DNA from: Giesbergeria sp.
GTDB taxonomy: Bacteria > Pseudomonadota > Gammaproteobacteria > Burkholderiales > Burkholderiaceae_C
Assembly (NCBI RefSeq): GCF_028686475.1
Contig: NZ_JAQUCA010000012.1
Coordinates: 1-64,000, forward strand
Length of the DNA stretch: 64,000 bases
Direction of reading: 5' to 3'
Under the pieces are notes generated by a model. It searched no databases, was not told the origin of the DNA, and saw only the letters and a list, made by a program, of their open reading frames with translations. The position numbers and the translations under genes are program-made. Below are positions 36,093-40,295 of this stretch, piece by piece. Each line of letters starts with the position of its first letter. Positions within the stretch are counted from its first letter, which is position 1.

Positions 36093-36815
36093 TCAGCGGT
36101 TCACGCGCACCAAGGCCGAATCCACCCCTGAGCCATCGAGCCGCCCCTTGAGTTGCTCGGCATCGCCGCGTTTGCCAAACGGCCCCAAACGCACCCGAAA
36201 CACCGTGCGCCCGCCTTGTTCGCGCTCACTGATGCGTGCTTCTAAGCCTTGCATGGCCAGTTTGGCGCGTTGGGCTTCGGCATCGTTTTGGCTGCCAAAG
36301 GAGCCAGTTTGCACGAAGTAGGTGAAGGGGTCTTCTGCGGTGCTGTTGCTGGCCGTATTGCTGGCTTGCATCCGGCTCTTGGCCAAATCGCCCAGTGGGT
36401 CGGCACTGGCCGCAGCCGAGGCGCTGGCTGGCGCTGGTGTGGGGGCGGGCTTGGCCTCGGTGGGCGGCTTGCTCTCAGCCGTTTTGACTTCTGGTTTGGC
36501 ATGGGCCGCTTTGGTGTCGGTGCTGGCCGCTGCGGGTGGGGTGGTTGTTACAGCGCTGGCCGCTGGGGCCGGTTCGGTAGGCTCGGCCGGGATGATGCGG
36601 GCCGGATTTTTGCCATACAAGGGCGCATTGGGGTCCCAAGTTTTGTTCTTTTCGTCTTCGGCGGCATCTTGGCCCGTGCCACGCACGGCACCTTTGTTCA
36701 AAAAGGGCACCGGTACTTTGGTGACATAGACGGCCACCGCAAAGGCGGCCCCCAAACCCACCACCAAGCCCAAAATAAAGCCCAGAATGGTGCCGCCTTG
36801 TTGCTGTTGTTTCAT
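36093..36815 (-). CDS. SPOR-domain membrane protein (FtsN-like)
   Basis: 240 residues. One transmembrane helix near 8-31 (GFILGLVVGLGAAFAVAVYV), a long Ala/Pro/Lys-rich periplasmic linker, and a C-terminal SPOR domain (about 165-240: 'TYFVQTGSFGSQNDAEAQR', 'VRLGPFGKRGDAEQLKG'). SPOR domains bind denuded septal peptidoglycan; FtsN and relatives act in cell division. Its ATG overlaps the stop codon of the upstream iscB (ATGA at 36812-36815 read on the minus strand), and no clear ribosome site lies in front, so translation probably depends on the mobile gene. Confidence 0.85.
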   Translation of the reverse strand: MKQQQQGGTILGFILGLVVGLGAAFAVAVYVTKVPVPFLNKGAVRGTGQDAAEDEKNKTWDPNAPLYGKNPARIIPAEPTEPAPAASAVTTTPPAAASTDTKAAHAKPEVKTAESKPPTEAKPAPTPAPASASAAASADPLGDLAKSRMQASNTASNSTAEDPFTYFVQTGSFGSQNDAEAQRAKLAMQGLEARISEREQGGRTVFRVRLGPFGKRGDAEQLKGRLDGSGVDSALVRVNR

Positions 36816-38251
36816 CAGTGTGCGCGTGAAACCTCGGCATTCATGCCGGGGAGGCAGAGCGCGGAACGCACAGCGTTCCTGGCTTGGGGCCTTGCCGGTT
36901 CACGTTTTGCGCTGTTGGCCCGGTTGAAGAAGTAGCCATAGCCATCACCACGCTGAATCACGCGACAATGTTTGTGGCTGATGCCTTGCACCACGACGGA
37001 TTGTCCGTCTTGGTAGCTTTGGATGTTAAAAGAACCACTGGCTCGAATCGCCACACGACCGATGTGGATGCCAGCTTTGACCCCCGAGGGCACTTCGGCG
37101 CGTACCATGTCGCCAGTGCCAAAACCATGCACCCGTTTACGGCGCATGAGGTAGCCCCTTGGAAAGCCAAATTTGTTCAGCCTTGTGCGTTGGTAACTGC
37201 CTCGGCCTGTGGCCTTGAGGGTTAAGGTGGGACATTGCCAGTTTTCGATGGCTTGTATTTTCCCGACGCAAGCAGCATCGAGTGCATGGGTTTTCGGGAT
37301 ACCCAGCGTACAACGGTTGAATTTGGTTTGACCACCCGAAGCCAGTTCGACCGGCAAGCCGGTGGCTTGCAGCGCATTCGCCAGCGCCCAGCGGGTAGCA
37401 TTGACGGCTGCTGCATCGCGCAAGGGCTGTTTGGCCTGTGTCAGTATTTTGGCCAGACGCTTGGGGTCTTTGGCCAAAAAATCTTCAATGCTACGCGCGG
37501 CTTTTTTCTGGTTGCAGCAGGCGCAAGCCAGCGTTAAGTTAGAAGCCCGATTGCTGCCGCCCTGCGCTTTGGGGTGGATGTGTTCGATTTGCAACGGAAC
37601 GTCTTGGGCATCGCAATACGCGCACTGGCGGCCCCATTTTTCCAGCAGGTACTCGCGCAGTTCGTAGCCGAATAAAGTGCCTTGCTGGTATTCGATGCCC
37701 GAGATTTTCGGGTTTTGCAGGGCTTGCATATCAAAGCGCACCAGCTCAGAGCTGATGGCTTTAAGTGGTACCCAGCGTTGGATGCGTCGCACCCACGCCA
37801 TGCAGGTATCGACCCGGTGTTGCAACGAGGGGGCCAGCCAACCTTCTTTTTGGTTGCCGCGATTGAGAAAACGCGGCGCACGGTGGCGCAACTGGTTTCT
37901 ACGCCGACGGCGCATCTGGCGGCGAGCGGTTAAGGCTTCGGAAATTTGTCTGCCACGATGGATTAACTCCATCAAGTTCAGCACCACGGCAGTAACTTGC
38001 ACTTCGCCGCTTTGCTGGTCAATGATTTCAGCATCGCGCACCAAAGCCAAGCCGGTAGTTTTGCTGCCGGGGTCGAGTTTCAAACGCAGTGGCTGAAAAG
38101 TGCAGGTATCCGCTGCACGGTCTGTGAGTCGGATGACCATCGGCACAAGGCGATGCACCCGCGCCCGACCACGCGCCAGCAGCAGCCGGGCGCGCTTTTC
38201 GGTGCAGGGCATCAATGCCTTACCTTGGGAATCCAACACAAAAACTGCCAC
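36815..38251 (-). CDS. iscB: IscB RNA-guided nuclease
   Basis: 478 residues from GTG 38249-38251, which has GGAG 7 bases upstream and gives the usual N-terminus (VAVFVLDSQGKALMPC); a TTG four codons earlier also fits. Order of parts: PLMP domain (about 1-55); RuvC-I 'LRLKLDPGSKTTGLAL' (D60); arginine-rich bridge helix near 108-130; RuvC-II 'AISSELVRFD' (E169); HNH with 'QIEHIHPKAQGGSNRASNL' (H224, N238) framed by CxxC pairs at 210/213 and 243/246; RuvC-III 'KTHALDAACVG' (H322, D325); and a C-terminal target-motif domain. All catalytic residues appear intact. IscB proteins, ancestors of Cas9, cut DNA guided by an omega-RNA and are carried by IS200/IS605-type elements. No tnpA is present, so the element needs help in trans. 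Confidence 0.93.
   Translation of the reverse strand: MAVFVLDSQGKALMPCTEKRARLLLARGRARVHRLVPMVIRLTDRAADTCTFQPLRLKLDPGSKTTGLALVRDAEIIDQQSGEVQVTAVVLNLMELIHRGRQISEALTARRQMRRRRRNQLRHRAPRFLNRGNQKEGWLAPSLQHRVDTCMAWVRRIQRWVPLKAISSELVRFDMQALQNPKISGIEYQQGTLFGYELREYLLEKWGRQCAYCDAQDVPLQIEHIHPKAQGGSNRASNLTLACACCNQKKAARSIEDFLAKDPKRLAKILTQAKQPLRDAAAVNATRWALANALQATGLPVELASGGQTKFNRCTLGIPKTHALDAACVGKIQAIENWQCPTLTLKATGRGSYQRTRLNKFGFPRGYLMRRKRVHGFGTGDMVRAEVPSGVKAGIHIGRVAIRASGSFNIQSYQDGQSVVVQGISHKHCRVIQRGDGYGYFFNRANSAKREPARPQARNAVRSALCLPGMNAEVSRAH
36830..36854 (-). mobile_element. Palindromic right-end hairpin of the IscB element
   Basis: cggcattcatgccg (36835-36848) is a perfect palindrome with flanking partial pairing (cct before, ggggagg after). 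It lies in the last 15 codons of iscB. IS200/IS605 elements end in subterminal hairpins, so this marks the probable right end, 20-30 bases before the SPOR start codon. The exact boundary is not visible. Confidence 0.5.
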
Positions 38252-38566
38252 GTATCTCTCCAAAAAATCAGCTGTCTTTCCAGCTAGTCAGCCCTTACGG
38301 GCCTAGTGACGGACATCTTGCGATGTCGCTCCCCTCGGGAATGTCCACAACCGGCTCCAGCTTTTACAAGCTGCGGTTTCAACCTTCGGGCTTTTACCTT
38401 GGCCCAGCATGATCAAAACCTTGCAGAGCAGCAAACTGAGGAAGCATTTGCTGGTGCGTCTCAACGACCTGTTGTCAACGTAGCGGGCTGGTTACCGCTT
38501 TCCCTGGTCAACTTGGCTTAAATCCTTTCGGCTTCAAGCCCCATCCTTCAGGATGGGGTAATTGAC
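38252..38566 (-). ncRNA. Omega-RNA scaffold region of IscB
   Basis: 315 bases without a gene, directly upstream of iscB where omega-RNA is encoded. On the minus strand it holds a series of short stems, most capped by stable tetraloops: CCCCATCC-TGAA-GGATGGGG (38539-38558), an imperfect stem with GAAA loop (about 38515-38536), AGCTT-GTAA-AAGCT (38358-38373 region), GACATC-GCAA-GATGTC (38312-38327), GCCC-GTAA-GGGC (38291-38302) and AGCTG-GAAAGA-CAGCT (38270-38285). That density of stem-loops is what a structured RNA should show. The first hairpin also fits an IS200/IS605 left end. Ends of the transcript are not known. Confidence 0.82.
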
Positions 38567-38585
38567 GGCCATGCCTGTTATCCGA
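38567..38585 (-). ncRNA. Candidate omega-RNA guide segment
   Basis: In IscB systems the guide is the flanking DNA just outside the left end, transcribed 5' of the scaffold. Here the 19 bases between the argS stop codon and the scaffold, TCGGATAACAGGCATGGCC on the minus strand, occupy that place. The guide/scaffold border (set at GTCAATTACC) may be wrong by a few bases. Confidence 0.5.
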
Positions 38586-40295
38586 TTACATGCGCTCGGG
38601 AGCTGATACCCCCAACACGGCCAAGCCATTGGCCAGCACTTGGGCGGTGGCTGCCACCAGCGCCAGCCGGGCCAGCTTCACCGCCTCGTCTTCTACCAAG
38701 ATGCGCTCGGCATCGTAATAGCTGTGGTAACTGGCGGCCAACTCGCGCAGGTAGAAGGTGACATCGTGCGGTGCGTTGCCCGCAGCGGCTGCGGTGAGCA
38801 TTTCGGGGTATTTGGCCAGCAGCAGCATCAGGGCTTGGGCTTGTGGGCCTTGCAGCGCCGATAAATCGACGTTTTGCAGTGCCGCTACACCCGCCCCGCC
38901 TTGCTCTTGCCAAGCGCGCAGCACCGAGCAGATGCGCGCATGGGCATATTGCACGTAATAGACCGGGTTGTCGTTGTTTTGCGCCACAGCCAAATCGACA
39001 TCGAAGGTGTATTCAGTATCGGGCTTGCGGCTGAGCAAAAAGAAGCGCACCGCGTCTTTGCTTGTCCATTCAATCAGGTCGCGCAGCGTGACATAACTGC
39101 CAGCACGCTTGCTGATTTTGACTTCCTCGCCGCCCTTGACCACACGCACCATCGTATGCAGCACATAGTCGGGGTAGCCTTGCGGAATGCCCACATCAGC
39201 CGCTTGCAAACCGGCGCGCACCCGCGCAATCGTGCCGTGGTGGTCGGTGCCTTGGATGTTGACCACTTTGGTAAAGCCACGCTTAAATTTTTGGATGTGG
39301 TAAGCCACATCGGGCACAAAGTAGGTGTAATTGCCGTCTTGCTTACGCATAACGCGGTCTTTGTCGTCGCCGTAGTCGGTGGACTTGAGCCACAACGCGC
39401 CATCTTGCTCGTAGGTTTTGCCATTGGCAATCAGGCGCTGCACCGTGGCCTCGACATGGCCGTTGGTGTAGAGGCTCGATTCGAGGTAATACTCGTCAAA
39501 GCGCAACTGGAAGGCTTGCAAGTCTTTGTCTTGCTCGTTACGCAGGTAGGCTACGGCAAACTGGCGGATGTTGTCGTAGTCTTCCACATCGCCATTGGCG
39601 GTAAATTCGCGGTCATCGGCCTTGACGGTGGCCTTCGCCAAAAAGGCGGCTGCAATGTCTTGGATGTAATCGCCGTTGTAGAAATTTTTGGCGGCGGGGT
39701 TTTCTGGGTCTATCGGCCAGCAGTCGTCACCGGGTTTGAAGCCTTTGGCGCGCAGTTGGGTGCTTTTGGTCAGGGTGTCGATTTGCACACCTGCATCGTT
39801 GTAATAAAACTCGCGCTGCACGCTCCAGCCTTGGCTGGCGTACAGGTTGCAAATGGCATCGCCCAAGGCGGCTTGGCGACCATGCCCGACGTGCAGTGGG
39901 CCGGTAGGGTTGGCCGAGACAAACTCGACCAAGATTTTTTCGCCACGCGCGGGTTGGTCACCAAATTGTGGCCCTTGGGCCAACACGGCTTGCACCACTT
40001 GCTGCTTGGCGGCGGGCAGTAGGCGGATGTTCAAAAAGCCGGGGCCAGCAATTTCAATTGCGGCCACCCAGCGCTGAAAGGCGGCCGTGGCTTCTAGCGC
40101 TGCTTTGAGTTGCTCACCCAAGGCGCGCGGGTGGAGCTTGAGCGGCTTGGCCAATTGCATGGCGGCCGTGCAGGCAAAATCGCCATGCGCCGCCACTTTG
40201 GGCGATTCAAACGCCGCCTTGGCACCAGCACCGGGGGAGAGTTGTTCTAGTTCAGCCGCTAAGGCGGCCAGCAGTTCGTGTTTGGCAGAGAGCAT
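38586..40295 (-). CDS. argS: Arginyl-tRNA synthetase
   Basis: 569 residues. Class I synthetase with the HIGH-type motif '[15 protein letters not shown]' (HVGH at 135-138) and a KMSKS-like '[16 protein letters not shown]' near residue 395; N-terminal Add1 domain and C-terminal anticodon-binding DALR domain ending SAPERM. It charges tRNA-Arg. The IscB element begins within 20 bases of its stop codon, so its native terminator or spacing may have been displaced. Confidence 0.96.

What the first reader, a model, noticed from the sequence alone, without database searches (positions are those of the whole stretch)
36815..38585. Intact IscB nuclease with a strongly structured omega-RNA region
The protein keeps every RuvC and HNH residue (D60, E169, H224, H322, D325) and the PLMP, bridge-helix and CxxC features. 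The 315 bases upstream hold at least five stem-loops, most with tetraloops. IscB is an RNA-guided DNA nuclease related to the ancestor of Cas9, so a full, apparently active locus from this lineage is worth testing. No tnpA lies next to it, so it is a non-autonomous or domesticated copy.
Basis: partly seen in the sequence, partly recalled or inferred. Interest (0 to 1): 0.75.

Follow-up and report, generated by a model that had tools for sequence, protein, structure and literature searches.

The report
IscB elements sitting on start codons
The window holds an intact RNA-guided DNA-cutting transposon gene (IscB) with its guide RNA, one copy of a family that has spread through this bacterium mostly by inserting between genes' ribosome-binding regions and their start codons, which makes it possible to test how such elements land on vital genes without killing them.

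Summary
Window 36815-38251 (-) encodes an intact IscB (NCBIfam guided_IscB 443 bits, cut-off 175) with all five named catalytic residues. The upstream RNA passes Rfam's HEARO (omega-RNA) threshold, 112.6 against 83 bits, with compensatory change in 42 of 76 predicted pairs.

It is not a lone or domesticated copy: the genome holds 14 HEARO places, 13 over cut-off, five IscB frames over the family cut-off and iscB-less derivatives. Only a fragment of an IS200-type tnpA and two RAYT-like genes were found.

All 17 right ends found in this genome abut ATGA; in 15 that ATG opens a frame of 57 or more codons, including FabH, ClpA, RuvA and the only full Ddl. Congeners show precise empty sites, so the element splits ribosome-binding region from start codon. 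The element's terminal TG plus the target's A makes TGATG, completing iscB's stop on the host start codon. Ribosome handover is inferred. On plasmids only 3 of 7 comparable copies sit on an annotated start.

The parts
36816..38566 (-). whole IscB element (1751 bp), left end GTCAATTACCCC at 38566, right end ...CACGCGCACACTG at 36816
   Evidence: left and right ends shared by the copies while flanks differ; empty site in 18 of 18 same-genus genomes with a complete argS 3' end
36815..38251 (-). iscB, 478 aa; the stop TGA is TG of the element plus A of the target ATGA
   Evidence: NF040563 443.1 bits, cut-off 175; RRXRR and HNH Pfam; residues; stop position
38256..38261 (-). Shine-Dalgarno-like GGAGAG of iscB
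   Evidence: sequence
38323..38566 (-). omega-RNA scaffold (HEARO, RF02033)
   Evidence: covariation
38567..38582 (-). DNA encoding the guide: about 16 nt (length recalled) of host sequence 5' of the omega-RNA, at the argS-ftsN-like junction
   Evidence: inferred from omega-RNA logic; no second guide+ATGA site in the own genome within 3 mismatches
38539..38558 (-). left-end hairpin CCCCATCCTGAAGGATGGGG
   Evidence: sequence; hairpin kept in the alignment
36832..36851 (-). right-end hairpin CCCCGGCATGAATGCCGAGG, inside the last iscB codons
36831..36835 (-). SD-like GAGGT; best anti-SD duplex window ends 14 nt before the host ATG
   Evidence: duplex energy -6.3 kcal/mol
36812..36817 (-). junction TG|ATGA: iscB stop and host start codon overlapping by one base; ATGA is the inferred target-adjacent motif
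36093..36815 (-). host gene whose start codon was hit: SPOR-domain, FtsN-like protein
   Evidence: PF05036; start codon conserved in congeners
38586..40295 (-). upstream host gene argS
   Evidence: TIGR00456 396.6 bits

Best explanation
A non-autonomous IS200/IS605-type mobile element made of omega-RNA plus IscB nuclease. The roughly 16 host bases 5' of the left end become the RNA's guide, and the motif 3' of the target is ATGA (TCAT on the other strand, which would be the TnpA target). When the element leaves, or meets an allele without it, IscB-omega-RNA cuts the restored guide+ATGA site, so that repair from an occupied copy puts it back. The occupied site is safe because GTCA, not ATGA, follows the guide. 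Because ATGA contains ATG, surviving insertions lie mostly on start codons. The element separates the host gene's ribosome-binding region from its ATG but mostly ends in TG, so that TG plus the target's A gives TGATG. Ribosomes finishing iscB, or other frames crossing the right end, then stop on the host start codon and can restart there. Shown here: protein, RNA, ends, precise empty sites, start-codon position, overlap, multicopy spread. Inferred: transcription, guide loading, cleavage, repair-driven retention, trans TnpA, ribosome restart.
For: Family assignment. Catalytic residues. RNA covariation. Multicopy with different flanks; the same HEARO search rang in 0 of 14 control genomes. Empty sites: in 18 of 18 same-genus genomes with a complete argS 3' end, argS is followed directly by the SPOR gene's ATGA. 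Alignments run across the joined junction for 5 of the 6 joined flanks searched, out of 15 own junctions. At clpA the 20 nt before ATG, with AAGGAG, are identical to the element's guide in 11 of 13 congeners. No unoccupied copy of the window's target within 3 mismatches in the own genome. Start-codon hits: 15 of 17 own right ends open a frame of 57 or more codons, 10 of the 17 with a profile match. Relatives: 19 of 31 distinct junctions have a profile-matched host gene at the ATG. TG|ATGA in 40 of 46 junctions. The one Ddl place over the cut-off in a 99% complete genome lies behind an element. Annotated iscB/next-gene overlap TGATG in Polaromonas and Cupriavidus plasmids.
Against: No expression, cleavage or translation data. 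Start-codon enrichment is strong against all ATGA sites (background 4.6-10.3%; P 1e-18 to 2e-13) but weak if only insertion-tolerant sites count (P 7e-4 to 0.05), so selection on survivors may explain it. On plasmids 3 of 7 copies with this end are on an annotated start. Six of 48 junctions (own genome and relatives) are not starts and 13 are undetermined. The iscB frame does not end at the junction in 2 of 8 own copies, one of them the ddl copy, nor in 9 of 24 relatives, so strict iscB coupling cannot be the only route. The SD-like GAGGT ends 14 nt from ATG, longer than usual, and the right-end fold is not exceptional. No intact IS200-type tnpA was found in the assembly. The promoter scan found no more than chance, and one of four terminator-like sites lies between omega-RNA and iscB.
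Confidence: 0.75

Rival explanations
1. The start-codon position is only survivorship. Insertions occur at any TCAT/ATGA; those inside genes are lost, and the host gene behind a surviving element is expressed from its own ATG with the SD-like GAGGT of the right end. There is no ribosome handover.
For: ATGA sites outside ORFs are about as few as ATGA starts (13 against 12-27 in the window); P only 7e-4 to 0.05 under that null; plasmid copies 3 of 7 on annotated starts; the ddl copy has a broken iscB frame.
Against: Insertions split good native SDs from ATG (clpA AAGGAG, MazE-like GGGGGG), which should hurt unless the element restores initiation; GAGGT sits far from ATG and inside a predicted hairpin.
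Confidence: 0.45
2. Domesticated IscB serving the host, for example as a regulator of the ftsN-like gene or as defence.
For: Intact ORF between housekeeping genes; guide matches the ribosome-binding region of the next gene.
Against: Multicopy family with different guides and deletion derivatives; window locus empty in 18 of 18 congeners that could be read; nuclease residues kept, unlike nuclease-dead regulators (recalled).
Confidence: 0.05
3. Decayed, no longer mobile element: the transposase is lost and the copies are relics.
For: No intact IS200-type tnpA found in the assembly; several copies with deletions or frame breaks.
Against: Copies up to 96.9% identical and B copies up to 99.1%, intact iscB; congeners G002 and G007 carry full-length Y1 matches, and IscB-right-end-like sequence lies beside some TnpA genes; an assembly in 65 contigs may lack repeats.
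Confidence: 0.25

Closest known systems
IscB/HEARO elements (NF040563, RF02033; OgeuIscB 7xht, 8csz)
   Same: PLMP-type N-terminus, split RuvC, Arg-rich bridge, HNH, HEARO RNA upstream, guide at the 5' side (recalled), few loci with tnpA (PMC9755519, section 9 read)
   Different: Multicopy in one beta-proteobacterial genome with iscB-less derivatives; right end meets the start codon ATGA and iscB's stop is completed by the target
DtIsrB and relatives (8dmb; PMC9581776, passages read)
   Same: omega-RNA-guided; NTGA-type motif 3' of the target, nearly the same letters as ATGA here; SD of the ORF in the terminal hairpin of the RNA
   Different: IsrB lacks HNH and nicks; here HNH is present
Polaromonas JS666 and Cupriavidus basilensis plasmid iscB (L220, L222)
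   Same: iscB and the next annotated CDS overlap by one base in TGATG
   Different: next CDS hypothetical; on plasmids
IStrons (PMC4227781, start of abstract in a listing only)
   Same: IS-derived element that limits harm to the interrupted gene
   Different: IStrons splice out of RNA as group I introns; here no intron was found by Rfam, and the proposed relief is at translation start

Membership tests
IscB | score above the curated family cut-off over the full model | tested here: met
   443.1 bits, cut-off 175, model 1-314/314
IscB | all RuvC (D, E, H/D) and HNH (H) residues | tested here: met
   D60, E169, H224, H322, D325; all five align in HfmIscB 9k2z and IscB 11hr, three of five in TbaIscB 9k30
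IscB | omega-RNA directly upstream | tested here: met
   RF02033 112.6 bits over gathering 83; 42 of 76 pairs with compensatory change
IscB | guide taken from the flank beside the omega-RNA and a motif on the other flank, rejoined in the empty site | tested here: met
   sequence relation only: empty sites and ATGA at 17 of 17 own right ends found
IscB | RNA-guided cleavage of DNA | not testable with these tools
   needs biochemistry
IS200/IS605 transposon | subterminal hairpins, no target duplication, fixed short target | tested here: met
IS200/IS605 transposon | Y1 tnpA in the element | tested here: not met
   no Y1 match on contig C37; hence non-autonomous
IS200/IS605 transposon | intact IS200-type tnpA elsewhere in the genome to act in trans | tested here: inconclusive
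   only a fragment and RAYT-like genes found; draft assembly of 65 contigs
domesticated IscB | single, conserved, immobile locus | tested here: not met

The most novel reading that the evidence does not exclude
This IscB clade has a built-in way of landing harmlessly. Its target-adjacent motif is the start-codon tetramer ATGA. Its right end supplies TG so that the target completes the nuclease's stop codon as TGATG, and ribosomes leaving iscB (or, in the iscB-less copies of this genome, an 18-codon leader ORF preceded by AAGGA in 8 of 9) are handed to the host gene. The transposon thereby becomes an operon member, can occupy essential genes, and its guide is a conserved ribosome-binding region that exists as an empty target in related strains.
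Probability: 0.35. Interest if true: 0.75.

Novelty: new member of a known kind. Interest (0 to 1): 0.5.

Why it matters
IscB belongs to the family from which Cas9 is thought to descend, and what IscB does for its element in nature is still mostly inferred. A genome with several near-identical intact copies, iscB-less derivatives, exact empty sites in congeners and guides readable for each copy makes retention or homing directly testable. If insertion on start codons with stop/start overlap really keeps the host gene on, it explains how an RNA-guided element can occupy essential genes. It also means that guide plus motif are ribosome-binding region plus start codon.

Tried and rejected
Domestication was rejected: multicopy, empty in congeners. 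TTG 38263 as start was set aside in favour of GTG 38251, which has an SD. A partner tnpA with matching ends in the own genome was sought and not found. In relatives some TnpA loci show IscB-right-end-like sequence beside tnpA (L196, L200, L204, L205; pattern with up to 2 mismatches), which is suggestive only. The idea that every iscB-less lineage gains a leader ORF was dropped: ATG 18 codons before the junction is in 8 of 9 own B-type right ends (GTG in the ninth), but not in the two G002 elements L146 and L147. A phylum-wide IscB search gave only two genomes over the cut-off out of 398, with at most five candidates scored per genome, so it says little about spread; the family-wide HEARO search (7 of 399 with a match) had the same limit. 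The promoter scan (1 found, 1.5 expected) and terminator scan (4 found, 6.1 expected) were at or below chance. The right-end RNA fold is not exceptional (z -1.69 and -0.81). In relatives the script took the first ATGA after the right-end motif, so 'ends at ATGA' is partly by construction there; it lay mostly 5-6 bases past CGCGCA, as in the 17 own copies (always 5). The junction of L087 was first set 3 nt too early and moved. Rows dropped: L097 (no right-end motif), L152 and L162 (contig ends), L153 (no motif found); eight loci (L148-L151, L155-L158) duplicate loci and were counted once. One search counted 46 junctions, without L154 and L164. Weinberg 2009, Kapitonov 2015, Altae-Tran 2021 and one further paper were not held. 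That HEARO elements precede ATGA/GTGA and that one IscB has an ATGA motif is recalled, not read.
Full report
WHAT IS THERE. The minus strand of 36815-38251 encodes a 478-aa IscB starting at GTG 38251 with GGAGAG upstream. It matches NCBIfam NF040563 at 443.1 bits (cut-off 175) over the whole model, and Pfam RRXRR and HNH. All five align with the same residue in HfmIscB (9k2z) and IscB (11hr); in TbaIscB (9k30) D60 and H224 face A. The RNA upstream passes Rfam's HEARO threshold at 38323-38566 (112.6 bits against 83). It folds better than all 100 shuffles, and in 15 related RNAs 42 of 76 predicted pairs show compensatory change.

ELEMENT ENDS. Fourteen HEARO places lie in the 3.39-Mb, 65-contig genome, 13 over the cut-off; the search rang in 0 of 14 control genomes. 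All 14 left ends begin with GTCAA, 12 of them with GTCAA(T/C)TACCCC (L018 and L024 differ by a base), and the flanks differ just outside. Seventeen right ends were found, each ending in CACGC(G/A)CA plus five bases followed by ATGA. In the window the element is 36816-38566, 1751 bp. Five IscB frames score over the family cut-off. Other copies are shortened or broken, and one lineage (B, 465-468 bp where whole) keeps omega-RNA and right end without iscB. DNA identity reaches 96.9% between the window copy and the C54 copy and 99.1% within lineage B.

EMPTY SITES. In 18 of 18 same-genus genomes with a complete argS 3' end, argS is followed after 11-20 bases by ATGA, the start of the SPOR gene, without insert. 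Six of 15 own junctions were searched as joined flanks in 13 congeners. Five of the six (FtsN-like, FabH, ClpA, Phenol_MetA_deg, Ddl) gave alignments running across the join; the left flank of GspG did not align. No target duplication or loss is seen. At clpA, AAGGAG ends 5 bases before ATG in 12 of 13 congeners (7 in one) and is cut off from it by the element here. The 20 bases before that ATG are the same in 11 of 13 congeners, so this copy's guide would match their empty alleles. Within 3 mismatches the own assembly holds no other target for the window's guide; the only hit is the guide itself, followed by GTCA.

LANDING ON START CODONS. Of 17 own right ends, 15 open a frame of 57 or more codons at the ATG. 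Exceptions are L026, about 100 bases before another gene, and L027, whose partner half L025 ends inside an integrase-like gene (the pairing is read by eye). Ten of the 17 have a profile match: SPOR, FabH, ClpA, Phenol_MetA_deg, Ddl, GspG, RuvA, MazE-like, carbonic anhydrase and RraA; five have none. Some domains lie far from the N-terminus (for example carbonic anhydrase 354-461, RskA_C 122-243), so for them the start rests on the frame alone. In relatives I have 31 distinct junctions (23, seven more, plus L164). Of these, 27 frames were scanned and 19 have a profile-matched gene at the ATG, among them Obg, PdxJ, a GalE-like epimerase, an exonuclease-type protein, PRAI and a GATase read by eye as HisH. 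Four (L082, L083, L098, L164) open only short frames, and eight are undetermined. In total 29 of 48 are profile-supported, 6 are not starts and 13 are undetermined.

HOW FAR BEYOND CHANCE. The window has 263 ATGA sites on both strands, of which 12 (first starts of greedy ORFs) to 27 (upper bound) could be gene starts, and 13 lie outside ORFs. Against all ATGA sites, 15 of 17 has P between 1e-18 and 2e-13. Against only those sites where an insertion would not break a gene, P is 7e-4 to 0.05. So the motif plus loss of harmful insertions explains much of the pattern. What it does not explain is why separating a ribosome-binding region from its start codon is tolerated: the genome has a single Ddl place over the family cut-off (eight other matches are partial and below it), and an element stands between its native upstream region and its start codon.

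THE JUNCTION. In 40 of 46 junctions the element ends in TG, so TG plus the target's A reads TGA overlapping ATG. The iscB frame ends exactly there in 6 of 8 own copies with a readable start. In 24 relatives it does so in 12, and 3 more (L090, L098, and L097, which lacks the right-end motif) end on the TGA inside an ATGA. Nine of 24 relatives and 2 of 8 own copies, including the ddl copy, end earlier. The right end also carries GAGGT (-6.3 kcal/mol with the anti-SD, ending 14 bases before ATG) inside a hairpin whose stability is not exceptional. The nine own B-type right ends have a possible 18-codon leader ORF ending at the junction: ATG in 8 of 9, AAGGA before it in 8 of 9. It is absent from two iscB-less elements of G002. 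I infer ribosome handover as one likely way the host gene stays on, with direct initiation from GAGGT as the main rival.

INDEPENDENT ANNOTATION. Fifty-two plasmid records encode a relative; I opened 22 of them, leaving out P. aeruginosa, P. paraeruginosa and Campylobacter by choice and others for economy. In seven (L220-L225 and L233) iscB or a similar right end runs into ATGA. In 3 of 7 that ATG is an annotated start: Polaromonas JS666 and Cupriavidus basilensis with a one-base iscB/CDS overlap, and Pseudomonas veronii. In L221, L223, L224 and L233 it is not. In the other 15 I saw no such end in the stretch printed (by eye; in several loci only the last 130 bases before the next gene); several cyanobacterial and Deinococcus copies seem to end just before the next gene's SD instead.

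TRANSPOSASE. Y1 matches in the own genome are a fragment beside a tnpB (C20) and two RAYT-like genes (labels by eye). Full-length Y1 matches exist in congeners G002 and G007 and in G350, G635, G731 and G732. Next to some of them (L196, L200, L204, L205) lies sequence like the IscB right end. Trans-mobilisation is therefore plausible but not shown. TCAT as TnpA target is inferred from the position of ATGA.

NOVELTY. The protein and RNA are an ordinary member of IscB/HEARO. IsrB's NTGA motif is in print (PMC9581776, passages), and only a few HEARO nucleases are associated with TnpA (PMC9755519, section 9). I found no statement of start-codon landing or stop/start overlap in the held library (search listings, and passages of four papers), but the founding papers are not held, so I do not claim it is unpublished.

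Noticed in passing
L229 (Trichormus plasmid C) and L230 (Deinococcus sp. KNUC1210 plasmid), also L231, L236: iscB sits between annotated parA and parB in two phyla (L229, L230); in all four loci the element seems, by eye, to end just before the SD of the next gene, not at ATGA. Other clades may use an SD-like motif.
   Followed up: partly
own genome C43, C62, C36, C46, C25, C45 (L015, L020-L023, L025): iscB-less 465-468 bp derivatives (L025 cut by the contig end) with diverged omega-RNA and a possible 18-codon leader ORF; hosts include two parA-neighbour genes, a MazE-like and a HicB-like gene (last by eye).
   Followed up: partly
L025 (C45 end) and L027 (C41 start): One copy appears to lie inside an integrase-like coding sequence, split over two contigs; the only own copy seen inside a gene.
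   Followed up: partly
window 38286-38269 (-): A stem-loop followed by a T run lies between omega-RNA and the iscB SD; a terminator-like match, but such matches are no more frequent than in shuffles. It could end the omega-RNA.
   Followed up: no
L018 (C3:86.8-88.5 kb): A diverged IscB copy (71% identical protein) in front of a 277-aa protein without Pfam or NCBIfam match.
   Followed up: no
L081-L084, L096, L098, L100 (NZ_CACSJA, titled Pantoea sp. 18069): Seven IscB matches of a type otherwise found here mostly in beta-proteobacteria, in an assembly titled Pantoea; the title may be wrong.
   Followed up: no
L031 (own genome C20:109900-113500): tnpB with a truncated IS200-type tnpA whose surviving end closely resembles the intact TnpA of congener G007 (L201), by eye.
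   Followed up: partly
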